From NCBI GenBank assembly GCA_021399445.1, contig JAJTUQ010000008.1, forward strand, positions 496,001 to 560,000: a DNA stretch of 64,000 nt, read 5' to 3'. Below the pieces are notes generated by a model that was given only the letters and a program-made list of their open reading frames with translations, did no database searches and was not told the origin of the DNA. A program made the position numbers and the translations under genes. The DNA is from Xylogone sp. PMI_703. Taxonomy: Eukaryota > Ascomycota > Leotiomycetes. Below are positions 11,457 to 41,875 of the stretch, in pieces. The number at the start of each line of letters is the position of its first letter. Positions within the stretch are counted from its first letter, which is position 1.

Positions 11457-13385
11457 TTACTGCGCTACCTCCTCTTCCACCCAGCCATTCAACCCATTCT
11501 CTGGGATAGCAAGCCTAAACCCGTTGCTATCGAAGCCACCGTTACTCAGGCCAGAAAAGCTGCTCTGGTATTGGTGGCCACGTGCATTGCTGGGCACCAG
11601 CATACCGCCGATGGTCGTAGCCGCCGAGGTACCATTTTGGAATCCATTGCTGAGGTTGACACTGGAACTTTGATGGTGACCTAATGAACACTGTTGAGGT
11701 ATATCAAGGGCATCAAGGCTGGCGCTGTTAGGGCTGCTGCTGAAAAGAGCAGCCTGCTGAGCGGCAAGAACATTCTGTTGCTGTTGCTGCAGGGCTGCGA
11801 CCGAGAAGGGATCTAATTGTTGCTGTGCCTGTTGGGCTTGAGCCTGCTGGCTGACCTGGTTGAGGTACATCGTGAGTGGGTTGTTGCTACCTGCATTGAG
11901 GATGGCGGATGCGGTTGGGCTCGATCCATTCTGGCTGGGTTGAAGACCACCACTGTTAGATGGCGGTGAGTTCACACCGCCAGCACGAGGGGGCTGGGCC
12001 TGCTGGAACTGGCGAGGAGGGTTTCCACAGCGATCCTTGCCAAAGTTGACCTTGAACCGTCGGTACTCTTCCTTGCCTCGAACGGCCTCAATGGCCTTGA
12101 TTGCATTGGCAATGTTGGTGAAGTTGACAAAGGCGCAGCTCTTCTCTCGAAGAGTGTTCACTAGCTCGATCTCGCCGTACTCGGAGAAATCCTGTCTCAG
12201 TCTTTCCTCCGTCCACGATTCGTCCAGGTTGCCCACATAGACATTTCGGGAAGCACCGCCGCTGACAGCAAGGGCAATGGCTGCGGGCAAGGCGCCGGAA
12301 TGCTTTCCCCATCCAATCTTCAATTTTCTGTTGTGAATCATTAATCTCTGCAAATTACTCAAGGCGTAGAAAGAAGCTGCAGAAGTTGGATCAATAAAGG
12401 TGACAAAGCAGATGTGCTTGTCGGGTATATATCGAATGTGATGTAAAATTCCACCCCTGACAACGTTACAAATCTCCTCAATAGTGGTCTCCGGATGAAC
12501 GCTCCCCAGATAGACCGTTCGGTTTCCTAGGTTGTCGATGTCTCCTGCAGATGTAGCCGCGGCCGCGGCCGCCACAGACTGCCGTGCCAAAGCATTGGAG
12601 ATCAGATCTCGGTCTGCACAGTTCAGCACGTGTGTATATCCGGGAGCAATACCCAGATACTGGGCAGCATTTTGCTGCTGCGTCCTGGAGACGTACGCAC
12701 ATCGATCCTTTCCGTAGTAGACGCGGCGTGATGCTTGCCACTTCGGCTCCTGGGGCAATTGTGCAACAGCCTTGATAGCATTTCCGATGGACAGGAAGTG
12801 CACAAAGCCGATCGCCTTCTCTCGTACGATCTTGACGGTGTCGATTGGGCCAAACTTGCCAAGATCCTCGCGTAGCTCCTCTTCGGTCACCTCCTCAGGT
12901 AGGTTTCCCAGGTAGACGTTTCTGGAAGCACCCGACTGCTGTACCGCCAGGGCCACAGATGTGGGCACCTGAGAAGGCTTTCCCCATCCCATCTTGATAT
13001 CCTGGCCTCGAATAGCAAGCCTCTTCAAGATTGCATCGGAATGGAAGTGCGTGGCGGAGCTGGCATCCAAGAATGAGATGAAAGCACAGTTCTTGTCTGG
13101 GAGGAGTCGGACGGACTCGATCTGCCCACTTCGAACATGACCCAGAATCTCCTCGGCCGAGGTCTCAGGAGGAATATTTCCGAGATAGACGGTTCGGCTG
13201 GTGCTAGACATCATTCCCGGAGAGACGTTGACGCTCTGGGCCTGTTGCTGTTGCTGCTGTGCTTGCTGCTGGCCCTGCTGGGTATTCTGCTGCTGCTGCT
13301 GGAACGTTGCAAAGTTCTGGAAATGGGGGCTGGAAGTTCCTGGGGAACCTGGCTGGAAGGGGCTTCCGAGCGACGGTTGTGACAA
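11457..13385 (-). CDS. nrd1: Four-RRM RNA-binding protein, Nrd1/Mrn1 family
   Basis: The product has a Gln-rich N-terminus (about residues 25-50), four RNA-recognition motifs at about 64-136, 155-229, 289-361 and 380-453, and a Gln/Asn/Ser-rich C-terminal tail. RRM1 and RRM3 each end in a GWGK motif, RRM2 and RRM4 in a YGKDRC/FGKDRC-type motif. That alternating pattern is characteristic of fission-yeast Nrd1 and budding-yeast Mrn1, cytoplasmic mRNA-binding regulators of differentiation and stress responses. The open frame has an upstream TAA and begins at a TTG; the first in-frame ATGs are at residues 58 and 59 (13214 and 13211). The low-complexity N-terminus is family-like, so an upstream exon probably supplies the true start; a GCTAAC branch-like site lies near 13420. 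This is the only conserved core gene in the window. Confidence 0.9.
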   Translation of the reverse strand: MSQPSLGSPFQPGSPGTSSPHFQNFATFQQQQQNTQQGQQQAQQQQQQAQSVNVSPGMMSSTSRTVYLGNIPPETSAEEILGHVRSGQIESVRLLPDKNCAFISFLDASSATHFHSDAILKRLAIRGQDIKMGWGKPSQVPTSVALAVQQSGASRNVYLGNLPEEVTEEELREDLGKFGPIDTVKIVREKAIGFVHFLSIGNAIKAVAQLPQEPKWQASRRVYYGKDRCAYVSRTQQQNAAQYLGIAPGYTHVLNCADRDLISNALARQSVAAAAAATSAGDIDNLGNRTVYLGSVHPETTIEEICNVVRGGILHHIRYIPDKHICFVTFIDPTSAASFYALSNLQRLMIHNRKLKIGWGKHSGALPAAIALAVSGGASRNVYVGNLDESWTEERLRQDFSEYGEIELVNTLREKSCAFVNFTNIANAIKAIEAVRGKEEYRRFKVNFGKDRCGNPPRQFQQAQPPRAGGVNSPPSNSGGLQPSQNGSSPTASAILNAGSNNPLTMYLNQVSQQAQAQQAQQQLDPFSVAALQQQQQNVLAAQQAALFSSSPNSASLDALDIPQQCSLGHHQSSSVNLSNGFQNGTSAATTIGGMLVPSNARGHQYQSSFSGLSNGGFDSNGFRLAIPENGLNGWVEEEVAQ

Positions 13386-13399
13386 AGTAGTGGTTTAGT

Positions 13400-17395: not shown

Positions 17396-18537
17396 GCCTC
17401 TTGACTCTCAGTGTGTCGGGCAGAACTCGCAGCCACTTTCGACTTCACACCTAAGGCACATAATTCAAGGGGAGGCCTCCACACACGCACAAGTGGCGAT
17501 ACACACATTCTCTTGGATTCCATTTTCCACACTTTTCACACGGGATCCAACCACTAATGGCTCTGGTGGTCAACAAATCCAGGTAAAGGAGATAGTAGAC
17601 TGCGATACTATAACAGCCTAAAACAGCTTAGCGCTGCTAGACAGGATATATCCCTGCTATCCTTAATCAGATAACAAAAAGGCTATTTTTGGCGCTGCTA
17701 ACTAGGTCCTTTAAAATAGCATTACCTACGATGCTATGTCAGCTACCCAACCTGTTCTTTCTCTACAATACTTCCCTTTGAAATGGCTGTTTCTATGATT
17801 GCCTTTGGTAAAAATTGCGAGTATGAATCTATATGGAAAATCTTGTTTCAGGATACCAAAGTCCTCGACGAATGCAGCACATCTGGACTGAAGTTTATTG
17901 TACTCGGAATCGACTTACCAGACATTATAGATGAATATCATAAAAAAGTTCATTGTCCAATTCGGCCTAAAGGCAGCACTCCGAAATTAGTAATAGTTAT
18001 ATTAAACGAGAAAAAATTCCAGTTTAGCAAGAATGGCTGGCAACGTTTCAAAAAGTCTCTCCGACCTCACTCGTACAGCGAGGGAAAATACGAATTCAAC
18101 CTTACTGACCCAAACATAAATTTAAACGTCCACAGTTGTATTTACAACACGCTACATCGACCTATATTCATCATGGAGCCCGACCGATTGTTTTATAGGT
18201 ATTATAAGAGTGGACTTGTCGAAGTAATCTCCACATGTGCCGCTATGTATGGGGACCGGTTAGAAAATGAAGACAAAAACAGGTCATATAGTGATACTGC
18301 AATTTGTCCACACTCTAGAGGGTATCAGATTGAACTAAAATATGCTGGTCGATTACATCAGTGGGATATTTTGCCGTTATGGTGGCAATGAAAATGTAAG
18401 GGGAACGTTGTGAAGTCCACTCTTTTCCATATCCTAGAAACGAAAAGGCTGCGTTAATTTGTAGGAAGGGGAGCTCTTGTAAACTACGTAACCTAGCAGA
18501 CATTCATTTAATCGAAAAAACCTTGTTGCCTATCTAC
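17396..18537 (+). repeat. Inverted segmental duplication, copy 1 (partner 62794 to window end)
   Basis: Over about 1.15 kb this segment matches the minus strand of 62794-63995 with small substitutions and indels. The match starts near cttgactctcagtgtgt and ends after ttgttgcctatcta. It includes the whole frame at 17783-18391 with its upstream region. The partner continues to the window edge, so the duplication may be longer. Confidence 0.85.
17783..18391 (+). CDS. Orphan protein, 202 aa, duplicated in inverted orientation
   Basis: A single uninterrupted frame from ATG, starting MAVSMIAFGKNCEYESIW. The product is soluble-looking, mixed alpha/beta, without signal peptide or membrane segments, and with several basic patches. 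I do not recognise the family. The second copy (minus, about 63042-63540) has lost the start codon (ATG to ATA) and has one extra G after the codons for NEDKN, so its frame ends earlier. Because the last 35 residues here depend on which indel state is ancestral, the true C-terminus may be near residue 167. The upstream region is duplicated too, so promoter and gene travelled together. Confidence 0.55.
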   Translation: MAVSMIAFGKNCEYESIWKILFQDTKVLDECSTSGLKFIVLGIDLPDIIDEYHKKVHCPIRPKGSTPKLVIVILNEKKFQFSKNGWQRFKKSLRPHSYSEGKYEFNLTDPNINLNVHSCIYNTLHRPIFIMEPDRLFYRYYKSGLVEVISTCAAMYGDRLENEDKNRSYSDTAICPHSRGYQIELKYAGRLHQWDILPLWWQ

Positions 18538-19404: not shown

Positions 19405-19700
19405 TGCTATGCGGCCTCTCCAGTACCACCTACGGAAGTACATCCCGCGCTTCGCGAGCCGCGAGCATCTCCGCCTGATTTTGCCACGTCTGGAAGGATC
19501 TCGGATCCACAAGAGCTTCCGGAAATCGATCCCTCTACAGTACCAGATATTTAAGTCAATAATTGTCTTGTTTTTCTTCTTATTTTTTCTCTTTATCTTT
19601 TTATTTTTCATTTTTTATTTTTTTGGGGGTGGAGTTGGGGGGGGGGGGGGGGGGGGGGGGCTCAAAGGGGGCTTCTGTATCAGCTTTTATTATAGATAAT
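19405..19700 (+). pseudogene. 3' relic of the orphan gene at 41362-41874
   Basis: The frame around PPTEVHPALREP to PEIDPSTV matches the last 40 or so residues of the 171-aa orphan at 41362-41874, and the 3' flank also matches (agggggcttctgtatcagc here, gagggcttttgtaatctgc there). The 5' part of the gene is absent. The flank here has expanded into a T-rich tract followed by a run of 24 G. Confidence 0.6.
19637..19660 (+). repeat. G homopolymer, 24 bases
   Basis: An uninterrupted run of 24 G, preceded by T-rich sequence and GGGGGTGGAG. The paralogous site near 41960 has only AGGAGGAGGGGTGTGGAGGG. A run of this length can form G-quadruplexes and is a common site of sequencing error, so the exact length is uncertain. 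Confidence 0.8.
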
Positions 19701-19967
19701 GGTCACCACCTCTTCATTCATTAAAATTGCTTTATTCACCATCTCCTTACATAACACTTACCGTATTTTAATCGCCGTATATATAGAAAACTGTACTCAA
19801 AGTCGGTTTCGATGCACTTGCACTCTGTGATTTTTTACTGTTCCTGTTAAAGTTAGGTTTGTAACAGCTGAAGCTCTAGAAACGACGCAATGGCATTCCA
19901 GCATTGTCCATTAGGATCATCTACATCTCATAGTTGGAGATAATGATGATATTGTTCTTGATCCCCA

Positions 19968-20257
19968 ATACGTGGTAATCATCTCGATTAGGCGTCGAGG
20001 TTAACTGTTGCGTATTTCCTTTCCTGGCTATTTTATTCGCCTTTGATTCGGATGAGGGAGACTTGGACCTATCATCTAGTGGCGCTTACTTGAACTAGCA
20101 GTACTTGAGTGGAGACGCTCTTCTGCTAGATTCGGCATGAACGTGCCAATCTGCGTCGTTGGTCATGCTCTTTGGGACATCGGAGTAAGCTTTCTCTGAA
20201 ATAGAAAGCATAGAAAGAAGGGAAACTTTGGGTCGTGTTATATAGTTCACTTGGACG
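19968..20257 (-). pseudogene. Inverted fragment of the pseudokinase N-terminal region
   Basis: The minus strand of this stretch matches 31450-31735, covering the upstream region and about the first 70 codons of the pseudokinase gene, including the GTTCGTGCCGAATC-like block and the CGCAACAGTTAA block. Indels and a rearranged start region destroy the frame. It is a non-functional fragment. Confidence 0.65.
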
Positions 20258-20387
20258 AGGAGTAATGAGAGGCCAAAATTGACTCCGCGGACGGTACTTT
20301 GATTTTTAGTTCTAATCTAAAGGGAAACACGAATAACTATGTATTTGCTGTAGCCTACTTCCTTCCGTCCCAACTTTACCTCTTACT

Positions 20388-22226
20388 CTAGGTCCAAACT
20401 AGCTGCTTGTTCTCGGCTGGCTGGTAGTCGAGCTCTAGTAACCTCACATTCTCACTTAAGTGTGGCTGGAGAAGAAGCCTTAGTTCATCACGTACTTGCG
20501 TATTGGCAGAAACTTGAGAAATCAGCTGAGAATTGGGTTGTTAAAAACTTCATATCCCACCTGTAATCAACATTTTAGTTTGGCTATAAACTCCATGTAA
20601 CAATATCTCATCATCCACGAGAGCGGAGAGTTTCATTTTGCCGTTGTCGTAAGCAAGCCGCCCATGAACCCCACCGTACTGAGGGGTAGGGGACAACCGC
20701 CCTTGCTCATAATAAATTCGTATACGGAGCATCTAAAGTAACTTAACAAAGACTCATGATTGTTTACCATCACTTACATATCCATTCCCCAATTCATCCT
20801 CCTCTAGAGCTCGATCAAGTAAATCACTGGCCGGCTTCTCATCTCCTACTGCGATTAAAAGTGGCTTCTCGATACGCTCAGAAGAACACCTACCATGATG
20901 TTGCAGTTGCCAAACCAGAGTAATATAACGTGTACGTACGACCGATGCATTAAAACCCTGAATAAGCTCCTTCAGAAGCGGTAGCTGTGCGGTTATTCCA
21001 AAACCGGTAGCGATCATGAACACCCTCCCATAATCGCCAGCGCGCACCGGCAGCCCATGTGGTCCACTAAGGAGAGCGATATGGGATCTTGTCGGTTCAG
21101 AAGTATCTGATACCCTAGCATCTCCGAAGGCTCTCTGGATAGGCCTAAACTTTTTGTCTCCCGAGTGTCGGTCTTCTCTGTAGGCGTCGGCTCGTGTGAA
21201 GAGCCTTTGCGTAAATCCCGTCCTTGGTTCTATGAGGAGATCAATACTTGGTCGTTCCCCTCCACTCCATGAAGCAATTGTGAAAGGATGAGTTTGCAAC
21301 GCAGACAATGGACTGATAGAGGGCATCCAGAGGTTAACGTACTGCCCAGCCTTGAAGCCCCAGTCCTTTGGTACATAAATCGTAACTCTAACAGCTCCAT
21401 TGTGTCTCGCGATTAGAGCCCTGGGGGTCTCTCCGTGAATCGAGACATTTCGATACAAAAGAGTGAGCACTTCAAGAGCCACTGTGACCAGGAAAGTGCC
21501 ACCGCAGATCAGTAAGTAGATACGCGGAAGTTCCCATTGCGAAACATGCTTCCATAGAGCGTAGACAACCATGATAGCCAAACCCTGATGAATGCGGAGG
21601 AAAATTTCGTAGGACAACCAGCGAAATATAGGAGATATCAAAAGCATCGAGGCCATACAAATAACTGCCTGAATCAACGTCAACATCTGGTTTTACCCTC
21701 ACTAAGGCAAGCTTACTGTCAGCCCAAAAATCCGGTCATCTGTGAGGCTCGGCTTGCTGAACACGCATATAAGAACATGCAAGAGGCTAAGAAGAATCGT
21801 CATACACCCCGCTGATGCATGCAAAGTATAATACTTCGAAATGGAGATGCCAAGTAGATCCGATGCAAAGCCCATATGAAGCCCAAGATAGACAGGGACC
21901 ATATTCATGAGCGATAGATGGCCTGCCTGGGCTGCCTCACTGCTAGTGCCAGCTTCCACGTACCATGCGCAGAAAAGGTTAATAGAGAAGTAGAGCAGCT
22001 GGACAGCCACCTGGACATAGGTCCATGGGCCAAAGAATCGGTAACGGGGAAGGATTCTGGGATAAACAAGGTAATTTTTAATTGGTATGCCATAGCGTTT
22101 CGAGAATGAAGAGAGACTTCTCAGAGCTCGAACAATCAGTAGCAAAAGAAGGCTACCAGCCAGACCAATACCGTAAAGTTGTGGAACGCTCAGATCAACG
22201 CCGTGAAACCGTGTGATGGTTGCCAT
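20388..22226 (-). CDS. Ferric-reductase-type transmembrane oxidoreductase (FRE family)
   Basis: Four exons, 22226-21717, 21668-20778, 20732-20561 and 20512-20388, join in frame over three introns of 48, 45 and 48 nt to a 565-aa protein. The ferric reductase transmembrane domain has both heme-ligand pairs, H136/H150 and H197/H211, each spaced by 14. A FAD-binding motif HPFT is at 297-300, a GPHG motif at 372-375, an ATGFGI nucleotide-binding motif at 390-395, and the family's LELDYQP ending is present. The enzyme should move electrons from NAD(P)H via FAD and two hemes across a membrane to ferric iron. It is intact as spliced and divergent from the DUF3723 gene, with 202 bp between the start codons. 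FRE genes are recurrent cargo of fungal Starship elements. The third donor is non-standard (GTGGGA) but has a CTGAT branch site. Iron or copper substrate cannot be told from sequence. Confidence 0.88.
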
Positions 22227-22428
22227 GTTTTACCAGAAGGATGAATGCTGAAGAATCTGATATCGTGAAAGGCCATAAATGTCGCTATATAGTCTCTCCT
22301 AAATGGCAGCCAATTGTGCTGGTTCTGGTGGCTGGGCCAGTTCTGTAGTTACATTATAGTAAGGAGTAAATGCTACTATAAAGACAGAAATATGGAGTAA
22401 CTAGTACGAGCGAACGCATTCTCTCGAA
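22227..22428. promoter_or_regulatory. Shared divergent promoter of the FRE and DUF3723 genes
   Basis: Only 202 bp separate the two start codons, so both promoters must lie here or overlap the genes. The sequence is AT-rich in its right half (tactataaagacagaaatatgg), with a TATAAA-like box at about 22376-22381 suited to the plus-strand gene. I see no GATA-rich iron-regulatory cluster. Confidence 0.55.
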
Positions 22429-25261
22429 ATGAACGAGTCGTCTACCCAAATTTTGTCAGGGAAAGCCTTGCAGATCTTCCGAGAAAAGAGCAGGGCGTTC
22501 TACGGATCAGCGAAAGTATCACTCGACAAGCTTCAGCACGAAGAGCTGCCCGACAACCCACGACAAAAAGATGATAAGAATATCGAGAGGCTCGTTAGAA
22601 TTTTTCGTTCGGATGGCTGTGACCCGCTAGACCCAGAAAATCACGTTCCTGTGCTGGTGTCCCGACGGATTCTTCCCAGAGAACCATTTCGTGTCGGAGA
22701 TGATTACCAAGTGTTCGATCCCGATCAGCCCCTCGTATACTTGGAAGGAAGACATCGTATAGAGGCTGCCCGCAAATTCCTTGAGGGAGATGATAGATGG
22801 TGGGTCGTTGACCTCTATTCAGACGGTCTGTGACCCGTCTCAACGCAGCGGCCACAGCTGATAGATGTAGACCTTAATGACCAGGTAAAGAATGAGTTCC
22901 GCGAGCATGATCCTAACTGCGCAAAATTTTATGATGGTGATATCCTGCGGCAGATTTTAATATCCACCATGCGTGGGGACAATGTAAAAAGAGGAAAATG
23001 GATGTCTCGGCTTTCAACAAGCAAGCAAGACTGCGTCAAGCGTCTCGAAGCACTACCTCCAATGTTTTGCAACAGCTTAAATGCCTTGATCCCGTTTGCC
23101 GGACTATGGCCAACTGTATTGATAGGGGCGATCCCACGACTCTCAAGCCTCCACTGTCCAGAAGTATAACCTTCCTTCGCCAGTGCTTTGATCCGTGCTA
23201 ACCGTGCAGGAAATGACCCGCTGCTTGCGCAGGGTCAAAGAGACATTGGTCTATATTATTGGTGAGAATGAGCAAGACTGGCTGTTAATTGATCCAAATA
23301 CTGTGCATCTTATCGAAGGCCGCTGTCCCGGCTTATCCCTCGAAGACCGTTCTCATGTTCAGAAAAAAATGAACACACGTGAACTGTTTCCTGGGATAAG
23401 AGACGATAGAATTCGATCGCAGATTCTCGAGCGTATGTGTGCAGTCCCGCACATCATCCCCACGATATACATGTGCATTGAGGATTCAAAGTGTCTGGAA
23501 CCTTGCGCCAGAATACTGAAGAGGATCCTCCCAGGTAGATGCAAGGGTTCCCTCGCGCAGTACTTCCGAGCTCTGCATAACGGTCAGCAGAACGTTAAAG
23601 TTCAGACTTCCGAGTTTACCTTTGAGAATCGCATATTATCTGGTTCTTACGCATCCTGGGTATCGTATCGTGTTCTTTGGCTCTTAGTCCTTCGTCACTG
23701 CCCGAGAATGGATGGCAAGTCACTGCGAAGAGACGTCGGGAAAGAAAGTACTTGGCAGCCAGGACTGCAGTTGAGGTGGTGGGCGGATCTTGCTGAACTC
23801 GCTCGCGAAAATGGATATGAAAGAATAATGCAGCCATACAGAGGATATAAAGTTGCAGAGATGACAATGATAGAAGATTTAATGAGAAGGATTCGTCCTG
23901 TAAAATACTTTAACCTCGATGTGAATTCCATGCGACAAAAGGTTGAACGTATCTCGGAGATTATCGGGGATGATCCGATCGTCCAAACACGAGTGACTGC
24001 ACCGGGGTTGACCTCCAACGATGACAATTGTAGGCCTGGAGTCTCCGACAGGTGTGGTCGGCCACGCGTGAGTGTCTTTTTAGCAGATGAAGACTACCTC
24101 TTTTTTGATTATATCTACTCAACCCCGTACGATACGACACCACAACAGTATTTGACATCGTTCGCAATTACGCGAGATTTCTTCCAGCGCTTCTTTGGAC
24201 TTGCAGAAGATGGCTTAGATCAGCCCTATTCAGGTATGTCTAGTGCCAGCCCCAACGGAGGAGAGCGCGCAGAAAGTACTCCTTCAGGAGTACCGCCTTC
24301 CAACCATGATCCACAGTCGGTGCAAGAGATTCTGCTACCATCAGAAATGCCCGTAGAAACCCCAGTTGCTTCCGACGACATGGCAATGGACGTAGAGACT
24401 CCAGGTTATACCCATCTGGAAGAGAGTCCAGGTGATGAAGAAGTGTTCGATGCAAGAGAAGATACGAGTGGGGCCGTGATTCCGTGGATCCCTTCACTGC
24501 AAGCTTCTCCAAACTTACCCGTAATTCGCACATTAGGTACAGGCTTGTTTGTTGACAGTGATATTGAAAATCCTGTTGTGCCGAGAGATCTCCCGCTGAC
24601 ATCACCATCTATGTTTGAGTTTCAACCATCCCAGCCCGGAACAATTTCGCTATGGAATGCCCGACGCTCTCTTCTTCGCTCCCGGATGGGCACTCCGCAA
24701 AAACCGTTTCAAGCCCTCCACCCCGCAGACAACGGTAGGTTCCACGTTCGCGTGGCCAATCCAACCAATATTGTCGAGATGATGAAGGCTCTCCAACCTC
24801 CTATACAGCCGACTACTATTCCTCGGTTTTTGACAAGGGACCATGCTAAAAGACTAAAAACTATGGATGTCGTTACTCTTCTTCATGATGCCCGCAGCCA
24901 CAAGCTTGAGACCGCACTTGTACTTTCAGAGCAGGATGTTGGGGAGCAGAGACGCCTACTAGAGGATAGCGAAGTGGACCGAGAATTGCCACATAAGGTA
25001 CCTGCGTATGCAAGCGAACCAGTAATTACGATTTTAATTTGGGATAACGGGGCGTGGAAGATAGCAGATAAACGGGTGACGCGAGGCCGAACAGCGGACA
25101 GAGTACAATACTATATGCGCCAGTACGGTGGCCTTCTACCGTACGATTGGGAAGGCCATCCTGTCTCTGTTGAAGATTGTTTCGATGCTGCCCAAAGAGA
25201 CGAACCACCAACCATTTATCTTTGTAATGCAGAGCAAAGCAATCGTGCATTTGAACTATAG
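22429..25261 (+). CDS. DUF3723-family protein, with one in-frame TGA
   Basis: The frame runs from ATG 22429 and carries a YLEGRHRIEAA motif (about residues 104-114) and WWVVDLYSD (about 124-132), the hallmarks I know from DUF3723. It then meets a TGA at 22831-22833 but stays open and family-like (FYDGDI...) to 23163. A 46-nt intron (23164-23209; GTATAA donor, CTAAC branch, CAG acceptor) joins it to the long exon 23210-25261. The total is 928 codons. The C-terminal half is Pro/Ser-rich and acidic, then folded again at the end (RRDEP-like tail). The TGA is either a recent nonsense mutation or a sequence error; a 32-nt intron there would be too short. DUF3723 has no established biochemical function but is strongly associated with Starship giant transposons and accessory regions. 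It is divergent from the FRE gene. Confidence 0.78.
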
Positions 25262-25341
25262 GTCTTCTACACGCCGCTCAGGAGACTTTTTCCCTCTAAA
25301 ACTAACTATCCTCATTCGGATTTACTCAGAATAAACCCAAA

Positions 25342-25466
25342 CTTCTCTTTTCTTTTCTTTCCTTTTCTTTTCTTTTCTTTTCTTTTCTTTTCTTTTCTTT
25401 TCTTTTCTTTTCTTTTCTTTTCTTTTCTTTTCTTTTCTTTTCTTTTCTTTTCTTTTCTTTCCTTTC
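25342..25466 (+). repeat. Microsatellite (CTTTT)n
   Basis: About 120 bp of nearly perfect TTTTC pentanucleotide repeats, with two TTTCC interruptions at the ends. It sits exactly between the end of the DUF3723 gene and the left edge of a segmental duplication. Confidence 0.9.
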
Positions 25467-25467
25467 T

Positions 25468-27680
25468 ACTTAAAAGAATGTTTTACCGTTCAGTGGCGGA
25501 GGCGGCAAGGTGGCACAGGCGGCGCAGGCGGCGCAGAGCTCATTCACCTACCTACACATCACTCATATCTGTGACAAAGCCAAAATTCCTGCAAGGATAG
25601 TTGAAAATATTATCGGATCGCAATTCTTAGAGGGGGTGTGGTGGGCTTCCAGTCGCTGTTGCGAATTTTATTCAAATCGAGGACATCCCTTGTGAGAAGA
25701 CACGCGATCATGCAACACCAAACTCATCCCACTGTCAAACTCTACAAACTTTTCCATGTTAGATTCCGATGGTTCCGTGGTACCCCGCCTTCATCGCCTA
25801 ATATCATTGGTGGTGATGAGCACGAAATCCAAAATGACGGGTATAATCACGATCAAGCTGAGTTGTTATGCAAACTCTAAAATTCATTGCATCTACCCGT
25901 ATGAGACATACGGTGCAAATCGTATACAACCACTGGAGTCGGCGGCTCGGAATACAATTGTTGGTTATGGTGGACCCGATAGGGTGAGATTTTAGAGGGG
26001 CATGATGGTATCACGAACAAGAGGCCTCGGACATGTTAGATAAGAGCGGTACGAGTACGTTGAAATGTTGATGCTCTCTCTTAGGCAGGTGAATGGAGTC
26101 GATGAAAATCTACCGTGTTCAATCTTACTAGCTTTTGCCGTAGTGTCGCACATTTTGTGCCAAAATGTTATCACATGCCCCACCAAGTTACATCCCAGTT
26201 ATGTGCCTTTGTGTGATTTCTCGCATGAAGCGGCTTTAATTAACCAAGCAGAATGGTTGCATTGACAGTGTACTAACAGTCATGCGGACGAGGTCTGTTG
26301 GTGGCGCAAGATGAGGGGGTGAGGAACAAAGACCGGTGTGGTGAAGCAATTTCTTGAATGTATGGACAGCCGTATCCCTCAAGCAGCTATCCTCAAGTCA
26401 GACCACATCTCTGTGTCGTCAATTTCTTGATTCAATATTTTCGAATCAAGAAACCGCAAACAGCATGGGTCCATTTTCGAGGCACATGCTCAAGGGTGCA
26501 CGGTTCTGGCCGCAGTCACAAGCAGTACGAGATCCATTTCTGGCCTACAACACAGTTGCCACATCGCAATCCTAGGACCCCTTCCGGCCGACAGGGACAC
26601 CACACCTCTTTGCTGCACGTCGTGTATCGAGCCAACAGTCAGGCTGCAACCAGTCTTTTGATCGATGGAAACGAGGGAGCGGTCCTCTAATGCAGCTAAG
26701 TCGCTCCTCTGCTCAACTCAAGTTCATCCCGAATCCCATCCAGTGTACCGTAGATAAGGGGACAAAGAATGTGTCTCTGGAGAATAATCACGAAATCTGG
26801 GATAGAGTCCATCGACGATTTCGCTGTGCCTCGCTCTTCCTTGGTAGAGATCTCTGCCATATAACACACAAGATCAATGAATCAATATCTTAGCATATTA
26901 TATCTTGTTAGCGCCTGAAAATCAATACATCAACAAGAACAACCTAAATACATAATTTCTCACTCTCTAACAGATACAGACTCCGCTACATAACTTCTCA
27001 CTCTTTGACAGACACGGACTCGACATTTTTGAGTTCGTGGCGAGAGCGCACTTTACCAAACGAATGGCAAATCAACGGATCTATGATTTCTCTCTTAACA
27101 TCCAACAATTATTATCTTGTCCCTTCACCAGAATCACCACGCGCGTCTAAGAAGTCAAGCAGCGCTTAGCCTGCATCTGTGTATGGCCGACAATTATAGC
27201 TTGCGTTTACTTGGCACTAGATTCCTGCGCGCCATCGCCTCTCGCGTAACTGCAGCTCATAGGGCGAGGGGTGATCGGTGGTTGACCGTGTCCTGCGCCA
27301 CGTTAGCATGTTCCTGCCTTAATCTACAGTATGACCCCACAAACGACCTGTCGTCAGCCTGACCGGTGTTTAGCTCCGGAATAAGGTTTGGCGTGCCAAT
27401 GCACAGCCCACCAATCGCTTTTACCTGTTGGATCCTCAAAGTGTTGGAAAATTCGCAAATTCTGTGCAATGGCCATCCGTTAAAACTGAAAGAAAAATGT
27501 TGGCAGATGTTACAGGATTTTAAAAGTATGGCGACCATAAGAGCGCAAATAAAAATATATAAGCAATGAGGGAGACTTGACTTGAAACAGGTAGTTTTCG
27601 CTCTACTTCTAGTATTCACATAATAAGCATAATCATTATCTCATTGAATAATGCATCCTCGCCAACAATAAGATTGGCCA
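25468..27680 (+). repeat. Segmental duplication, copy 1 (decayed; partner 38466-41090)
   Basis: Starts at taaaagaatgttttaccgtt and runs in direct orientation with 38466-41090. Within it the coding part of the 229-aa orphan is broken by a deletion of about 345 bp (at about 25877), leaving only N- and C-terminal remnants. At about 27135-27340 the sequence is inverted relative to the partner. Frames inside are short and interrupted, so this copy is a pseudogene segment. Confidence 0.85.
25710..26040 (+). pseudogene. Internally deleted copy of the coiled-coil orphan at 38716-39405
   Basis: The 5' part (MQHQTHPT...) and the 3' part (YETYGANRIQPLE... and the basic KRPRTC-encoding end) are recognisable, but the central coiled-coil coding region is missing and the frame is shifted. 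Confidence 0.7.
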
Positions 27681-27909
27681 ATGGTCTGGGTGATTGGCGA
27701 ATGGGTGGCATTGGCGTATCGGAACATATATGTTTTAAGAGAGATGCTTCTAAATTGCATGGAAACGTACTGTTACAACCCTCCTTTGTTATTGTAAAAA
27801 GATAGGAAAAGCGGAGGTACAGGTCAGCAAATTGTAAAGGACAGAATAGCTAAGTGTTGTTGCGCCAAATGTAAAGAGCTCCAACAGTTGGCACACTGGA
27901 CAGAACCAA

Positions 27910-28847: not shown

Positions 28848-28849
28848 AT

Positions 28850-29690: not shown

Positions 29691-29696
29691 GCCATC

Positions 29697-30626: not shown

Positions 30627-30629
30627 GGA

Positions 30630-31525
30630 AATAGTTTATGATTTTGAATAATAACTACAAGTTGATAGCCATTAATATTACGTAAGGTTTGAAATTATCC
30701 TTCCAGCTTTTCAGCTATGCTAGGTAGTACGCTTGTATACGGATAGTATGTAGATCTCGTAGTGTTGGCGTAGCAAGGCACATTGACTCCAGCATCTCGC
30801 AATAGCATTGTTGTCATCAATAAGAGGCATGGGTTTGCTTGTAGACTGAAAAAAATAATGTGATTTGACTTTGTTTTAGTATAACTGATGTACTTAAAGG
30901 GAAAATCGAGGACACTCAAACATAATCCGATTCAGGAACGGGCGACAAATCCTCAACTCTGGTCATACAACATTCCCCAAATCAGCCTCCCTCCACATGT
31001 CTTTGTGCGAGATTTCACCAGTTGAAGGTAGCAAAAGTTGTCGAAATATTCCTGGGATGGAAACTGGAAAGGACTGGTATACAATACTATACAGTACATA
31101 CAGTAACACCCCCTCCTTTTCTCCTTTGCTTGCTTGGTTCAGTTTCAGCAGCTACCTCCTATTTTGGCGTCCGTTAGTCTACTGGCTCAATTCTCAGCCA
31201 TCGGTTACCAATTGGCCAAGTATTGTCTCTCCCACTGTTGAGCCTCCTAATCACTCCCTTTGATATTGATTCCTAACGGGGTATTTCCAAGTGCGGGGGT
31301 GAAGTGGAAAAATATCTGGAGATGCCGGATCAACTTGATTTTATATCTACAAGGTTGTCTACCTCAGTTAAAGAAAAATTTTGCTAGAGATCTGTTAGCC
31401 ACACACAACAAAAATCGGTGCACTGTCTGCGGTGTCAATTCTGGCTCTCATACACCTTGTCCAAGTGAACTATATAACACAACCCAAAAATTCCCTTCTT
31501 CCTGTACTTTGTGAAGCTTGTTCTG
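30630..31525. other. Intergenic interval upstream of the pseudokinase gene
   Basis: No gene supported. A short plus frame at about 31395-31510 includes a Cys pattern (CTVCGVNSGSHTPC) that runs out just before the pseudokinase start; it could be a degraded upstream exon but has no clear splice partner. The last 75 bp recur at 20180-20257 as part of the inverted fragment. Confidence 0.4.
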
Positions 31526-32587
31526 ATGTCCCGAAGAGAACGACCAACGACGCAGATTGGCACGTTCGTGCCGAATCTGGCAGAAGAGCATCCCAACTCA
31601 AGTACTGCTAGTTCAAAAAAGCGGTTACTAGATGTGTCTAAGTCTCCCTTATCCGGCTCAAAGCCAAATAAAATAGCCAAGAAAGGAAATACGCAACAGT
31701 TAATCTCGACGCCTAATCGAGATGATTACCACGTGTTTATGGTTATAGACCAGGCTGGTCCTGCTAATATAGCAAGTGATAATACTAGAGAACGCAAATT
31801 TGTCGCAATTAAGAGGGTTAAAGTCCGGGACGTAGCCTCGGCCAAGATAACGTCTTTCAAGAGCGACCACGTCGTGAGCATCAAAGACATGTATCTCGAC
31901 GGTAACAACATGGTAATCATTTACGAACAGATGGATGTTACAATGCGACACGTTACCAGCATATTAAATGCTCCCTTAAAGCCATTCCAGATCGCCGCAA
32001 TATGCAAAGAGGTAAGAACAAGGTTCTGGAATCTATTGCATTCTAATTTAAGACAGCTTCTGAGTGGCCTCTCTTACATACATGAGAAGCTTTTTGTATC
32101 CCATGGTAATATAAGCTGCGGCGCAATTCTTCTCAATCTCGAAGGAACGGTGAAGATAGGTGCGTTCTCAATCCACCATTATTTACTGTTATTCTGACAT
32201 GCGAAGCAAATATTGGAGAATCCCTTTTGCAGAATAGAAAACTATCGACACAGGCCGAACAACACGACGTCCAAAGTGTAGGCTATGTAATGATAGAGCT
32301 CATGGAGCCTTCAACATACATCCTCGATCCTCGGTCCACAGAACTGAAAAATCCAGAAGAATGGAAAGATGAATCTGGAATTAAAGAGTTTTTGGCAGCT
32401 ACTCAGCATCAGTCTTTAGAGGTATTAAAGGAGGTAAGCTCTTACTATTGAAAAATTAGAAAGTCACACTCACAACATAAAGCATAATTTTCTTCCAAAA
32501 GAATCGTTGGCAATGTGCTTGAGAGAGCACATATTTTGTGCGTTACGGGTAGCGAGAATGGAGTGGGATATTATAGCACTTCCGTAG
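31526..32587 (+). CDS. Protein-kinase-fold pseudokinase
   Basis: Exons 31526-32011, 32057-32159, 32219-32433 and 32528-32587 join in frame to 287 aa. The introns are 45, 59 and 94 nt; the first has a CTAAT branch site. A Ser/Lys-rich N-terminus (1-65) precedes a kinase-like fold: FVAIK with the beta-3 Lys at 96, a hinge-like IIYEQMD, LLSGLSYIHEK, then HGN in place of the HRD catalytic loop (about 178-180), and VKIGES where DFG should be. The final segment RVARMEWDII resembles the C-lobe end of related fungal kinase-like proteins. The Gly-rich loop is not recognisable. Loss of the catalytic and metal-binding Asp residues predicts an inactive, probably scaffolding or regulatory protein. A broken copy of its 5' end lies inverted at 19968-20257. 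Confidence 0.72.
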
Positions 32588-32741
32588 CCTAAGTAGCATA
32601 GCACACCAAGATGATAATTTGGAAATACAAAAAATTTCGGCTGTTACACGCTCATCATTCCTCGAACAGTTGTCAACTCTAACTTGACCTCCTAATACCA
32701 AGTTTGAATCTCGGTGACTTGTTTAGCAAGGGGGAAGATAA

Positions 32742-36222: not shown

Positions 36223-36714
36223 CTATTTACTATTTAGTTGCCTAGATAAAATCGTCCATACTTTATTTTGGCCAGTATAAAAAAGCTTAATATGTTGTTC
36301 AACAATAATATCGAATACCTCTGAATCTTGACCAATGAGTCCTCGCAAGGATTCGTATTCTTTTATACTTTTCCACAAATCAGTTCGTAGAGTGATTCGA
36401 TCGTGATCTAATTTCGAGCATACTTGATCAAGCTTCAAGCAGATTTGATCAAATTTAGAGATTTGGTCAATCCCCCGTGCATGAAGTCTTGAAACAAGGT
36501 GTTGAGGAGAAATATTTGAGCGTGACTGATGCCGTGGTGGATGTTGAACCTCATGAGGGAGAAGTGCCTCAGCAAATACGGTCTGCTGTTGTTGCCGATT
36601 CGGGTGATGCGTCTCAAGTTGGCTAGCTGGAGCTGGAGCTGGAGCTCCAAAATCCTTCAGAGCTTGTAAGATAGCAGCGGTGAGTTGTGGATTTGCCTGG
36701 TTCTCTGCAGACAT
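36223..36714 (-). CDS. Hypothetical protein, 163 aa, Gln-rich with helical C-terminus
   Basis: A complete frame from ATG. Residues 1-75 are low complexity: a repeated Ala-Pro stretch around 24-31 and a Gln-run near 41-45. Residues 85-160 look helical, with a heptad-like repeat of FDQICLKLDQVCSKLD suggesting a short coiled coil. No known domain recognised; there is no signal peptide. Coding bias is plausible but there is no homology support. Confidence 0.45.
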   Translation of the reverse strand: MSAENQANPQLTAAILQALKDFGAPAPAPASQLETHHPNRQQQQTVFAEALLPHEVQHPPRHQSRSNISPQHLVSRLHARGIDQISKFDQICLKLDQVCSKLDHDRITLRTDLWKSIKEYESLRGLIGQDSEVFDIIVEQHIKLFYTGQNKVWTILSRQLNSK

Positions 36715-37282
36715 AGTGAATTCGAAGCTTTGTGTTCTTCTATTGTGGGAGATCGTGCATAAATTTTATCCAAGCTTACACTACTATGGAAGAGAGAAAT
36801 CTCCTCTTCCCTGCCCAGGTATCTAGGTGTCTCGATTGTAGACTCTTATCCCACCTACTTTCAGATTCAGTTATAGAACATATAAATCTTTTTACCATAT
36901 CCTATTGCTGGTCTAACGCTAGAAGTTAGTATTATATTAGTTAATTCAGGAGAGAACGCGATATTCTTTTCGCATTCCTAGTTGGCACTTACAAGATTGG
37001 CATGTTACGTTTCTGACACTGTCTGAACTTAGCGAGGATATAAAGGCTCACATAACTAGTCAATGGCCATGGAGATGAGGGGGGAGTAACGATGGTGTGC
37101 TGATGTAAGTGATATGCAAATTGGCAACAGGAAATGGCAGCAGGAAATGCTCAATACGGATGTAGGGGAAAGATGTGGCAAAAAACGGTTTCATTTAGTG
37201 TCACCCCATCCTTCACGGAACAGCGCTAGGAAACGGCCCAAGGAAAGTCTCCACATTGACCACTGAATAGTTTGTAACATAA
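36715..37282. promoter_or_regulatory. Divergent spacer between the 163-aa orphan and the MADS-like gene
   Basis: No gene supported. Both flanking genes point outward, so their promoters are expected here. Confidence 0.35.
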
Positions 37283-38131
37283 ATGGCTTTCATGGCGCAT
37301 GAACTGGCTCATGCAAAAATGGCTCGAAAACCTATACGGAGAAATCAAAGAGGCGGAGATGCTCTCAAAGAATCAGACCGAAGACGACGACAAATATTTC
37401 GAAAACGCGGGCCTAATGTTATTAAGAAGGTGGTGGAGTTGATAATATTGACTGGTTGTCGTGCCGCGGTTGTTATTGAGGATTTGAATGGCAATTGCCA
37501 CAGCGCGAGATCATCTGGCGATTCCGCATGGTCTTCATATATTGATAAGATAATTGTAAGGACACCTTTCTTACATCCTCTGGTAATGCATTAACCATTT
37601 TTAAAGGAGCGATATCCCTTGGGAAAGCATCAGCGTATCCCAATTTCATTTAGTCCATCGAACAATGATCCAACACTGAGCGACAACGATCAAAATGGTG
37701 GGGGATCTGAATGTCAAACTACCTCTGACTGCTACCCAGACTCAACCATTCAGCTCATAGATTCACCCATAGCTAGCTTCCTCGAAAATTGCACAGCTAA
37801 ACAGCCAGAGAACTTCAGCCAAAACAACCCACAGATGGATGTGGACTCTTCAAACGGTGAAGAGTTCGAATTGAGAGAGGCAAACAACAGAAGGAAATTG
37901 CGGGACATCAAAGGACCTATCTCTCTGCATCCGTTAGCAAAATCCGATATTGGAAAGACTACAGCGGAGGAGGGCGATGAGAGCACTTGGAAGAGACCCT
38001 CCGGGATGGGGGAGAAAGTTCTGCATAACTCATCGGATGCAGCACCCGATCGTGACGAGCATGAGCAGGCCCTCAACATATCTTCCATGATGCGCTTTTT
38101 GGATGACTGTAGTGCCATCTTTCAGAGGTAG
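37283..38131 (+). CDS. MADS-box-like (SRF-type) putative transcription factor
   Basis: Exon 1 37283-37555 and exon 2 37607-38131 join in frame over a 51-nt intron (donor GTAAGG, acceptor TTAAAG) to 265 aa. Residues of about 30-75, with the pattern DRRRRQIFRKRGPNVIKKVV followed by ELIILTGCRAAVVIEDLNG, resemble the SRF-type MADS domain (basic stretch, F-x-KR, I-KK, EL-x-L-x-TG, then a hydrophobic beta strand). Conservation is partial, so DNA binding is inferred. The C-terminal region is acidic, Ser/Asn-rich and low complexity, as in activation domains. It would be an accessory, non-orthologous MADS-like gene; the alternative is a diverged basic nuclear protein. Confidence 0.5.
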
Positions 38132-38465
38132 AGGTTGTATCCTGGCCCTGCCTCTAGAGAAGGGTGGTTTAGTTTGTATCACATGTTAACTTCATCCAGT
38201 CTCTTACTCGTACAAATGAAACAGTTTCTCTAGTCGTGGTTGTATGATCGCAGAACCTGCCGACGCATGGTAAATTTACTGAAGACAACTCTGTACACTG
38301 CAGTTGGGCTCCTCGCGGCCCGACTGGGTCACTGTGAAGTGAGACGCTTAATTCGCTGTGTACGATACCGCACTTCTCTGGGGTGGGTGCTTAGCCGGAT
38401 CATTCTCGGGTCGAATCATGGACTACACAGCATTTCCAGTTCATCAAGGTTCGATTCATATTTCA
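38132..38465. other. Short intergenic interval
   Basis: No gene supported; ends at the left edge of the segmental duplication. Confidence 0.4.
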
Positions 38466-41090
38466 CCCAAAAGAATGTTTTACCGTTCAGTGGCGGAGGC
38501 GGCAGAGGCGGCGCAGGCGGCGCAGAGCTCATTCACCTACCTACAAGTGTCAGAAAATGGACACCACTCAGATCTGTGACAAAGGCCAAAACCCCTGCAA
38601 GGGTGGTTGAAAATACGATCGAAACATAATTCTCAGAGAAGGTGTGGTGGGCTTCCAGTCATTATCGCGAATTTTATTTAAATCGAGGACGCCCCTTGTG
38701 AGAAGACACGCGATCATGCAACACCAAACTCATCCCACACAGTCAAACTCTACAAACTTTTCCATGTCAGATTCTGGTGGTTCGGTGGCTACCCCGCCTT
38801 CATCACCTAATGTCATTGGTGGTGATGAGCGCGAAACCCAAAATGGCGGGTATAATCGCAATCAAGCTGAGTTGTTCTCCAAAATCGGATCCAAAGCAGA
38901 AGCAATAATGAATTTAGCAACATCGGGCTTAGAACAGATATTTAATAGCCAAACCAAAAAGCCCAACAGCAGTGGTCAAAATGACGGGCTGTTATATAAG
39001 AAGCTTGAAGAACGTTGCAATGAGCTCGAGGAATCTTGCTGGACCCAGAAGCTAGAGATAGAGCATCTCAAACAAATTGTCTACGGGTGGACAAGCAGAG
39101 AGACAGACCAGATACCGAAATACGCACGCAGCGCGACACATCTCATACAGAATGGAGCTCCATTACCCGATGACGAGTTCAATCTTGGATCAGCGGAAGA
39201 TTCATCACCAGATTCATCACCACGCTCTAAAAGTCATGGCATCTACTCGTACGAGACATACAGTGCAAATCGTATACAACCACTGGAGTCGGCGGTTCGG
39301 AATACAGTTGTTGGTTATGGTGACTGTTGCGGACCTGGGACCCACTACGGTGAGATTTTAGAGGGGCAGGATGGTATCACGAACAAGAGGCCTCGGACAT
39401 GTTAGATAAGAGCGGTGCGAGTACGTTCAAAGGGTCGATGGTCTATCTTAGGCAGATGAGATGGATTTTTAGCAGTACTTTCTTCATCTATACATGAATG
39501 GAATCGATAAAAATTTACCGTGATCAAGCCTGTTAGCTTTTGCCGTAGAGTCGCACATTTTGGCACCAAATGTTATCCCATGCCCCACCAAGTTACATCC
39601 CTGTTATGTGCCTTTGTGCGATCTTTTGCATAGAACGGCTTTGATTGACCAAGCAGAATGGTTGCATTAACAAGTACTAACAGTCATGCGGACGAAATCT
39701 GTTGGTGGCGTAGGATGAGGGGGGTGAGGAACAAAGACGGGTGAGGTGAAGCGATTTCTTGAATCTATGGACAGCCGTATCCCCTCGCTGCGTCGTCAAT
39801 TTCTTGATTCAATATTTTCGGATCAAGAAACCGCAAACAGCATGGGTCCATTTTCGAGGCACATCATTAAGGCTTTGCAGCTCAAGGGCACGGTTCTGGC
39901 CGCAGTCGCAAGCAATCCGAGATCCATTCCTGGCCTGGCAATAACCAACACAGTTGCCACATCGCAATCCTAGGACGACGTCCGGCCGAGGGCACCACAC
40001 CTCTTTGCTGCACGTCGTGTATCGAGCCAACAGTCAGGCTGCAACCAGTCTTTTTGATCGATGGAAACGAGGGAGCGGCCCTCTAATGCAACCAGGCCGC
40101 TCCTGCGCTCAACTCAAGTTCATCCCGAGTCCTATCCGGCGCAGATAGGGGACAAAGAACGCGTCTCCGGGGAATCATCATGAAATCCGGGGTAAAGTCC
40201 ATCGAGCATTTCACCGTGCCTCGCTCTCCCTTGAGACAGATCTCTGCTATAAAACACACGACCAATAGATCAATCCGCAAGCATCCTGAAACTCATATAT
40301 CAACGCGAAAAGCCTAGATACATAATTTCTCACTTTCTGACAGACGCGGACTCAGTTGCACAATTCTCACACTTTTGAGTTCATAGTGGGAGCGCACTTT
40401 ACCAAACGAACGGCAAATCAATGGATCTAGGATTTCTCTCTTAACATCCAACAATTATTGTCTTGTCCCTTGCATAGATTAAGGCAGGAACATGCTAACG
40501 TTGCTGCAGGACACGGTCAACCACCGATCACCCCTCGCCCTATGAGCTGCAGTTACGCGAGACGCGACGGCGCGCAGGAATCTAGTGCAAGTAAACGCAA
40601 GCTATAATTGTCGACCATACACAGATGCAGGCTAAGCGCTGCTTGACTTCTTAGACGCGCGTGGTGATACTGATGACCCCACAAACGACCTGTCGTCAGC
40701 CTTACCGGTGAGGCAAAGAGCCGTTTTAGCTTCGGAACAAGGTTTGGCGTGCCAATGCACAGCCCACCAATCGCTTTTACCAGTTGGATCCTCAAAGTGT
40801 TGGAAAATTCGCAAATTCTGCGCAACGGCTCTCTGTTAGAACTAAAAGAAAAATGTTGGAAGATGCTACGGGATTTTAGGGGTGCGGCGACAATAGAGAG
40901 CTCAAATAAATATGCATATAAGCAATGAAAGAGATTTGATTTGAAACAAATAGTTTTTACCCTACCTTTAGTATCTCTTTTGATATGGATCCATTAAATC
41001 TACTTTATCTCACATATCTGGCTAAATTTTCTGGCCAAATAAGCATTATCATCATCTCACTGAATGATCCATCTTCGCCAACAATAAAAT
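38466..41090 (+). repeat. Segmental duplication, copy 2 (fuller; partner 25468-27680)
   Basis: Begins aaaagaatgttttaccgtt followed by a GGCGGC-rich short repeat and ends near cgccaacaataaaata. It contains the intact coiled-coil orphan and about 1.7 kb of shared non-coding sequence. The block at about 40472-40675 is the reverse complement of 27135-27340 in the other copy. Confidence 0.85.
38716..39405 (+). CDS. Coiled-coil orphan protein with C-terminal nuclear-localisation-like motif
   Basis: The first ATG in the open frame (38716, MQHQTHPTQSNSTNFSMSD) gives 229 aa. The N-terminal 50 residues are Ser/Thr/Pro-rich. A coiled coil spans about residues 95-130 (KKLEERCNELEESCWTQKLE). A Ser/Asp/Pro-rich stretch follows, and the product ends in TNKRPRTC, a basic motif resembling a nuclear-localisation signal. 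No domain is recognised. The upstream duplicate at 25710-26040 has lost the coiled-coil part, so only this copy can be functional. Confidence 0.5.
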   Translation: MQHQTHPTQSNSTNFSMSDSGGSVATPPSSPNVIGGDERETQNGGYNRNQAELFSKIGSKAEAIMNLATSGLEQIFNSQTKKPNSSGQNDGLLYKKLEERCNELEESCWTQKLEIEHLKQIVYGWTSRETDQIPKYARSATHLIQNGAPLPDDEFNLGSAEDSSPDSSPRSKSHGIYSYETYSANRIQPLESAVRNTVVGYGDCCGPGTHYGEILEGQDGITNKRPRTC

Positions 41091-41227
41091 ACATCGCTGT
41101 GATTACATCTATCCTATCGGGTGGGCCACTCTTCCACATCATTATTCACTTGCTTTGCAAAACGTCATTGAATCAGGTCTGTTTTATTGGATATATTGTT
41201 ATCATCTGGTACATACCTTTCTCTTAG
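40985..41227 (+). CDS. Short hydrophobic ORF (low support)
   Basis: Eighty codons from ATG with two or three hydrophobic stretches (IIIISLND; YIAVITSILSGGPLFHIII). It straddles the right end of the duplication. No family recognised; could be chance in AT-rich sequence. Confidence 0.2.
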   Translation: MDPLNLLYLTYLAKFSGQISIIIISLNDPSSPTIKYIAVITSILSGGPLFHIIIHLLCKTSLNQVCFIGYIVIIWYIPFS

Positions 41228-41361
41228 AAGTATCCCAACCGCAACTAAGGCGTCATAGCATTGCTCCCGATATTCTATGATTCACCGCTGTTCATACACA
41301 CAGTCTCAAAGCATACATTATTGTAACATTATTCGATATTGCATCCGCATGCGTGTTTCTT

Positions 41362-41874
41362 ATGAGCAGACGGCTTCGCTCTGCCAACAAGTCTGATGTT
41401 GAGATAGGTGAGCAGCGTAGGCCAGACATCGAAGGAGGAAACGGCGGTCGGCATTCTCGGGACTCAAATGAACGAGGCTATCGGAGGATCTCTCCTCCCC
41501 GAACGATGTCGCGGGCGGAAAACAATGAGCCTATTACGACGAACAACAGACCACCTATTATTCATTCTCCACCTTATGACATCCCACAGAGGTATCGAGA
41601 AGTCGACGTCCTTGAAGACGGGGTGAGCGGCGCGTTTCGTAGAGGCCCAGCTCGTGTTGTCCAAACATTTCCTTTCCAGGATATTTACGCTACAGATGAT
41701 GATAATGAGTCTCAAGCTGAGAATACAGATCCAGTGCCACCGACGGAGCTACATCCTGCGCTCCGCGAGCCGCAAGCATCTCCATCTAATTTTGCCACAT
41801 CTGGAAGGGTCTCGGTTCCACAAGCGCTTCCGGAAATCGATCCCTCTACGGTAACCAGATATTTGAATCAATAA
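41362..41874 (+). CDS. Hypothetical protein, 170 aa, disordered
   Basis: From ATG 41362 (MSRRLRSANKSDVEIGEQ). Highly charged and Pro/Arg-rich throughout, predicted disordered; no membrane segment or signal peptide. The C-terminal 40 residues recur in the relic at 19405-19560, so the gene family has at least two copies here. The 3' flank carries G-rich sequence in both copies. Function unknown. Confidence 0.45.
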   Translation: MSRRLRSANKSDVEIGEQRRPDIEGGNGGRHSRDSNERGYRRISPPRTMSRAENNEPITTNNRPPIIHSPPYDIPQRYREVDVLEDGVSGAFRRGPARVVQTFPFQDIYATDDDNESQAENTDPVPPTELHPALREPQASPSNFATSGRVSVPQALPEIDPSTVTRYLNQ

Positions 41875-41875
41875 T

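What the first reader, a model, noticed from the sequence alone, without database searches (positions are those of the whole stretch)
20388..25261. FRE and DUF3723 genes in divergent pair: possible Starship cargo module
An intact spliced ferric reductase (bis-His pairs, HPFT, LELDYQP ending) and a DUF3723 gene diverge from 202 bp. These two families, with NLRs and patatin-like phospholipases, are the ones repeatedly reported as Starship cargo. A decayed NLR N-terminus lies 25 kb to the right. The surrounding 45 kb consist of orphan genes, relics and duplications beside a housekeeping gene (nrd1), as expected of a giant element or its remains. No captain is in the window.
Basis: partly seen in the sequence, partly recalled or inferred. 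Interest (0 to 1): 0.8.

Follow-up and report, generated by a model that had tools for sequence, protein, structure and literature searches.

The report
Captain-less Starship-type cargo gene pair
Two neighbouring fungal genes of the kind carried by giant "Starship" jumping elements are really here and occur as linked neighbours at several places in this genome, but no engine gene of such an element was found on their contig, so this copy looks like stranded and locally re-copied cargo.

Summary
Observation mostly right, interpretation half right. The FRE gene (20391-22226, minus) is intact and matches a GenBank protein of Xylogone sp. PMI_703 without mismatch. The DUF3723 gene (22429-25261, plus) starts 202 bp away and reads as three exons. 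In this genome the two families are linked far beyond chance: 7 of 12 DUF3723 loci, on 5 contigs (C2, C3, C10, C20, C24), have an FRE-like match within 10 kb. On four of those contigs, not C24, a DUF3435 captain-type gene lies within 100 kb. "Starship cargo module" is thus well supported as a description of gene content. A Starship at this locus is not: the 1.30-Mb contig gave no DUF3435 match even at E<=10, and ends or an empty site could not be tested. Three side claims change. The "housekeeping" nrd1 is a truncated extra copy; the long gene is on C23. No NLR domain was found where a decayed NLR was claimed. The surroundings are a patchwork of segmental duplications. FRE plus the 5' half of DUF3723 recurs, inverted and 99% identical, 380 kb away, with signs of recent homogenisation. 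Best reading: derelict Starship-type cargo spread by segmental duplication. Ordinary in kind; the recurrent FRE-DUF3723 linkage is the interesting part.

The parts
20388..22226 (-). FRE: spliced ferric/metalloreductase gene, 549 aa, intact
   Evidence: 0 mismatches to P0165 = F5884DRAFT_534680; Pfam PF01794, PF08022, PF08030
22227..22428 (.). 202-bp intergenic region between the two divergent start codons
   Evidence: read
22429..25261 (+). DUF3723 gene, three exons (22429-22825, 22871-23163, 23210-25261), probable introns 22826-22870 and 23164-23209
   Evidence: PF12520; alignment to P0018 places both introns; coordinates read by me
19419..23350 (.). segment with an inverted 99.1% copy at C24:897621-901539; holds all of FRE and the 5' half of DUF3723. 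33 of 37 differing positions lie in 19594-20415, 4 in 20416-23350, none in 19419-19593
19419..19563 (+). end fragment of the repeated block 36323-41875, joined to the FRE module at both C24 loci
36323..41875 (.). segmentally duplicated block with partial or near-whole copies on C24, C13 and C4
25472..27674 (.). partial second copy of that block right of DUF3723, with a small internal inversion
19967..20307 (-). relic resembling the 5' part of the kinase-like ORF at 31478-32197, beside the FRE 3' end
   Evidence: 83% identity to 31410-31737
31478..32197 (+). kinase-like ORF (partial Pkinase and PK_Tyr_Ser-Thr matches, E 1.5e-5 and 3.5e-5)
11457..13394 (-). truncated extra copy of nrd1, not the housekeeping copy
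17443..18486 (+). about 1-kb segment with inverted copies at window 62846-63908 and C24:644736-645753; all 3 matches found lie on C24

Best explanation
The FRE-DUF3723 pair is a Starship-type accessory ('cargo') gene module that has lost, or was separated from, its captain. Inferred history: a DUF3435 tyrosine-recombinase element carried the module into this lineage. On C24 the element decayed, or only its cargo was copied there. The module then spread inside a duplication-prone C24/C13 compartment by ordinary segmental duplication, and gene conversion kept the two C24 copies nearly identical. Shown: intact FRE, open three-exon DUF3723, 202-bp divergence, recurrent linkage of the two families, captain-type genes within 100 kb on four other contigs, the inverted copy with uneven divergence, and no captain match on C24. 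Inferred: past transport by a captain, and gene conversion. Function, from family knowledge and not tested: FRE moves electrons from NADPH through FAD and two haems across the membrane to ferric iron; the role of DUF3723 is unknown, and a regulatory or DNA-linked role is a guess.
For: FRE matches the GenBank model. DUF3723 open with two probable introns. 7 of 12 DUF3723 loci (my grouping of the 23 matches) have an FRE-like match within 10 kb. In the within-contig shuffle (9 of the 12 loci; C1, C7, C19 left out, where no FRE or DUF3435 match lies near) 7 of 9 loci on 5 contigs, null mean 0.46, reached in 0 of 20000 shuffles. 6 of these 9 lie within 100 kb of a DUF3435 match (null 2.1, P 0.0018), and 5 of 8 FRE loci on the same contigs do (null 1.6, P 0.00025). 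C20: captain 71.0-72.3 kb, FRE-like 77.5-78.6 kb, DUF3723 83.3-84.5 kb. C2: NACHT 191 and 225 kb, FRE 208-209 kb, weakly kinase-like ORF 210-211 kb, DUF3723 211-213 kb, DUF3435 231 kb. Closest FRE paralogs are those of C2 and C3. In public proteins, FRE and DUF3723 homologues share contigs of identical length and source 3 times (16263 ena, 19466 ena, 13355 lgn; 44 DUF3723 against 69 FRE rows; length-jitter null 0.05, never 3 in 20000). Inverted 99% copy at C24:897.6-901.5 kb.
Against: No DUF3435 match on C24 at E<=10. No element ends, target-site duplication or empty site seen. Order and orientation of the pair differ between loci: divergent on C24; divergent with an ORF between on C2; convergent on C3 (337-kb locus); same strand on C10 and C20. 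The C10 FRE match is weak (E 5.7e-5, N-terminal part only) and the C20 one has 28% identity and one stop. Two of the 7 linked loci are copies of each other and two share one FRE, so 5 contigs is the independent count. The 10-kb and 100-kb limits were set after the loci had been seen. FRE and DUF3723 could cluster because both collect in repeat-rich compartments. 5 of 12 DUF3723 loci have no FRE within 10 kb. In Gaeumannomyces, Starships lack DUF3723, FRE and PLP genes (PMC12134995, passage), so these families neither define nor require a Starship.
Confidence: 0.62

Rival explanations
1. Resident accessory genes: FRE and DUF3723 pairs sit in repeat-rich, duplication-prone regions and multiply by segmental duplication and ectopic recombination, with no Starship ever involved at C24.
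For: The compartment is rich in old and recent segmental duplications; the one recent event seen is such a duplication, ending inside DUF3723; no captain match on C24.
Against: Four other contigs hold the pair within 100 kb of a DUF3435 gene; both families are described Starship accessory families (passages).
Confidence: 0.22
2. A still complete Starship whose captain was missed, for example a strongly diverged, intron-split or RIP-mutated tyrosine recombinase on C24, or one lying on an unjoined contig such as C13.
For: C13:11.5-12.7 kb encodes a DUF3435 relative just under the curated cut-off, related to the C2 one, and C13 shares duplicated blocks with C24. An AT-rich 12-kb block lies at C24 492-504 kb.
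Against: Search at E<=10 gives nothing on C24; captain pieces from six contigs find nothing better than E 0.76 in C24:296001-570000 and C24:891001-908000 (the rest of C24 was not read); no DUF3723 match on C13.
Confidence: 0.1
3. Vertically inherited core gene pair with a housekeeping role, in conserved synteny beside nrd1.
For: FRE is intact and the DUF3723 frame is open.
Against: nrd1 here is a truncated extra copy; the pair occurs at several loci; apart from P0165 the 69 listed FRE relatives are at most 66% identical.
Confidence: 0.03

Closest known systems
Starship giant transposons (Pezizomycotina): DUF3435 captain plus accessory NLR, PLP, FRE and DUF3723 genes (PMC12506042, passages)
   Same: Carries two of the four named accessory families side by side; other contigs of the same genome combine them with DUF3435 and, on C2 and C10, NACHT genes.
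   Different: No captain match on the contig; no ends, target-site duplication or empty site known.
Captain-less or disabled Starships such as 'Icarus' of Pyrenophora tritici-repentis (PMC9594970, passages)
   Same: Starship-type accessory genes without a DUF3435 gene, mixed with class I/II transposons.
   Different: Icarus has terminal inverted repeats and a comparison strain; here neither was available.
Possible Starship-derived region of the rice blast fungus, with FRE and NLR domains but no DUF3435 inside (PMC10691877, passage)
   Same: Accessory-type genes without a captain inside; a fragmented DUF3435 lies nearby in one strain.
   Different: That region is syntenic in all genomes compared; here synteny could not be tested.
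Other fungal FRE metalloreductases
   Same: Same domains and His pairs.
   Different: The window FRE is closest in its own genome to the FREs beside DUF3723 on C2 and C3 (41% and 44% over the part around the FAD domain); the other FREs score lower.

Membership tests
Starship element | DUF3435 (PF11917) tyrosine-recombinase captain at the 5' end | tested here: not met
   0 of 18 genome matches at E<=10 lie on C24
Starship element | Accessory families FRE and DUF3723 present | tested here: met
Starship element | NLR (NACHT) accessory gene nearby | tested here: not met
   none in the window; C24 matches lie at 386, 741 and 1242 kb. A HET-domain ORF lies at C24:567.2-569.2 kb
Starship element | Patatin-like phospholipase gene | not tested
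   no PLP search was made on the genome; none of the window ORFs scanned matched one
Starship element | Target-site direct repeats or terminal inverted repeats at defined ends | not testable with these tools
   ends cannot be placed without an empty site
Starship element | Presence/absence polymorphism between strains | not testable with these tools
   no relatives of this genome are held
Starship-type accessory gene pair (derives from cargo) | FRE and DUF3723 linked to each other and to captain genes elsewhere in the genome | tested here: met
Ferric reductase (FRE) | Two His-x13-His pairs, FAD and NADPH domains | tested here: met
   P0165 sequence, Pfam
DUF3723 (PF12520) | Match above the curated cut-off over the family profile | tested here: met
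   profile 1-83 and 179-508 of 508; 1-180 read through the first intron

The most novel reading that the evidence does not exclude
FRE and DUF3723, perhaps with a kinase-like gene, form an old co-inherited functional module rather than two independent cargo genes. It travels as a unit between Starships and captain-less compartments, and once stranded it keeps spreading by segmental duplication and gene conversion. The C24 (from about 505 kb)/C13 region would then be an accessory compartment grown from Starship cargo.
Probability: 0.3. Interest if true: 0.6.

Novelty: new member of a known kind. Interest (0 to 1): 0.4.

Why it matters
The papers of which I read passages list FRE and DUF3723 as separate Starship accessory families. 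If they are a linked unit, as five contigs of this genome and, indirectly, three public contigs suggest, this gives a testable handle on what DUF3723 does and may let derelict Starships be recognised without a captain. It also shows how cargo could stay alive after its engine is gone.

Tried and rejected
nrd1 as a conserved anchor was rejected: it is a truncated extra copy. DUF3723 as a pseudogene because of its in-frame TGA was rejected after comparison with P0018. The repeated block 36323-41875 as a transposon with defined ends was considered; one edge coincides with the stop codon of an ORF and no long terminal inverted repeat was found, so a duplicated gene block is more likely. Homology of the window kinase-like ORF to the ORFs on C2 and C3 was not supported by BLASTP, though those two are related to each other (the C2 one has only a weak Pkinase match, E 0.005, the C3 one none); a three-gene module is therefore only a suggestion. 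Scans of viral and prokaryote contigs for DUF3723 gave no relatives, so other contigs with the pair could not be read. No PDB relative of DUF3723 (best E 0.81) or of FRE at E<=0.001. A likeness, recalled from memory, of the DUF3723 stretch GRHRxxAA to ParB/sulfiredoxin proteins could not be tested because structure prediction was off; Pfam at E<=10 gave no ParB match. The 1-kb inverted repeats at 17.4-18.5 and 62.8-63.9 kb were considered as element ends and rejected because a third copy lies at C24:644.7 kb.
Full report
What is there. The window is C24:496001-560000 of a 50.1-Mb, 25-contig fungal genome; C24 is 1,296,432 bp. The organism is very likely Xylogone sp. PMI_703 (Leotiomycetes; lineage of the genus): the NCBI-named protein F5884DRAFT_534680 of that strain (P0165), listed with a contig of 1,296,432 bp, matches the window FRE with no mismatch.

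The two genes. FRE runs from 22226 down to 20388 on the minus strand and is intact, with FAD, NAD and ferric-reductase domains. DUF3723 starts at 22429, 202 bp away, on the plus strand. Its frame has a TGA at 22831, but the Hyaloscypha relative P0018 skips exactly the 15 residues around it, and a GT...AG stretch of 45 nt (22826-22870) fits. A second GT...AG stretch (23164-23209), with a CTAAC near its end, joins the next exon in frame. The gene therefore reads open to 25261. That both stretches are spliced out is inferred; no RNA data were seen.

Linkage to each other. The genome search gives 23 DUF3723 matches, which I group into 12 loci. Seven of the 12 have an FRE-like match within 10 kb, on five contigs: C24 twice, C3 twice (sharing one FRE), and C2, C10 and C20; five have none. 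Shuffling DUF3723 positions within contigs (9 of 12 loci used; C1, C7 and C19 left out, where nothing lies near) gave 0.46 on average and never 7 in 20000 tries. The distance limits were set after the loci had been seen. The C10 FRE match is weak (E 5.7e-5) and the C20 one has 28% identity and one stop. The FREs closest to the window FRE, after its own copy, are those beside DUF3723 on C2 and C3. In public proteins three contigs of the same length and source appear in both the FRE list (69 rows) and the DUF3723 list (44 rows), with 0.05 expected from a length-jitter null. As a control, 117 of the 120 listed nrd1 rows share no length with either list; the two rows of the window's own strain were left out, one of which (P0045) lies on the same contig as the window FRE. 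This is indirect, as the contigs themselves could not be read.

Linkage to captains. DUF3435 matches at E<=10 lie on nine contigs, none on C24. Six of the 9 tested DUF3723 loci, on five contigs, have one within 100 kb (null 2.1, P 0.0018), as have 5 of 8 FRE loci (null 1.6, P 0.00025). On C20 captain, FRE-like match and DUF3723 lie within 14 kb. On C2 an FRE, a weakly kinase-like ORF, DUF3723, two NACHT matches and a DUF3435 match lie within 41 kb. This resembles the gene set that published work calls Starship accessory genes (PMC12506042, PMC10175614, PMC9594970; passages read). Against a strict rule, Starships of Gaeumannomyces were reported to lack DUF3723, FRE and PLP genes (PMC12134995, passage). 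The original survey (Gluck-Thaler et al. 2022) is not held and was not read.

This locus. The six-frame search found no captain in the 1.30 Mb of C24. Captain pieces from six contigs find nothing better than E 0.76 in C24:296001-570000 and C24:891001-908000. A DUF3435 relative sits on C13, a 135.6-kb contig that shares duplicated blocks with C24, but nothing shows that C13 joins C24.

Surroundings. Window 25301-44800 has 69 scored matches elsewhere in the genome, 57 of them on C24 (between 515 and 1054 kb) or C13, at 65-98% identity (only 39 of 49 candidates were scored). The rest of the window adds matches of the same kind and also genome-wide transposons. The parts of this compartment that I read (C24 504-570 kb, 891-908 kb) are not AT-shifted, although a 12-kb block at 492-504 kb is strongly AT-rich and RIP-like. 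The nrd1 copy belongs to this patchwork: the long gene is on C23, and the window copy is truncated and 87% identical in DNA over its best stretch.

Recent history. Window 19419-23350 has an inverted copy at C24:897621-901539, 99.1% identical, cut off inside DUF3723. Of 37 differing positions (13 of them one gap at a G run), 33 lie in 19594-20415, none in 19419-19593 and only 4 in the 2.9 kb that hold the genes. A single duplication would be expected to spread differences more evenly; recent gene conversion of the gene part is the simplest reading, but it is inferred.

Judgement. As gene content, Starship-type cargo: likely. As an intact Starship: the defining feature was tested and not met. 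The most interesting part is the repeated FRE-DUF3723 linkage. Three papers in the held library contain 'Starship', 'DUF3723' and 'ferric reductase' together; the passages that I read in them name the two families but do not describe a linked pair. That is not proof that it is unpublished.

Noticed in passing
window 50304-52971: Mutator-like (MULE) DNA transposon: AFT/FAR1 and MULE domain matches, four copies at 91-94% identity on C2, C23, C25 and C8, more distant ones elsewhere, and short matching inverted ends.
   Followed up: partly
window 60206-61378: Transposase ORF with DDE_1 and Tc5-type DNA-binding domains; copies at 71-85% identity on 12 contigs.
   Followed up: partly
C24:492001-504000 (window 1-8000): 12-kb block of 27-29% GC with a high RIP index, the only such block in the 274 kb read; possibly a RIPed transposon nest or a centromere.
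   Followed up: partly
C13:11561-12666 (L040): DUF3435 captain-like gene just below the Pfam cut-off, related to the one on C2; C13 shares duplicated blocks with C24.
   Followed up: partly
C24:269648-270777: Decayed FRE relic (several stops) on the left arm of C24, without a DUF3723 match nearby.
   Followed up: no
window 45235-45445 and 46259-46469: 211-nt inverted repeat, 99.5-100% identical, 0.8 kb apart.
   Followed up: no
window 25342-25465: (CTTTT)n microsatellite of about 25 units just downstream of DUF3723.
   Followed up: no
L013:7218-9173 (C24:567218-569173): 651-aa ORF with a HET (heterokaryon incompatibility) domain about 7 kb right of the window.
   Followed up: no
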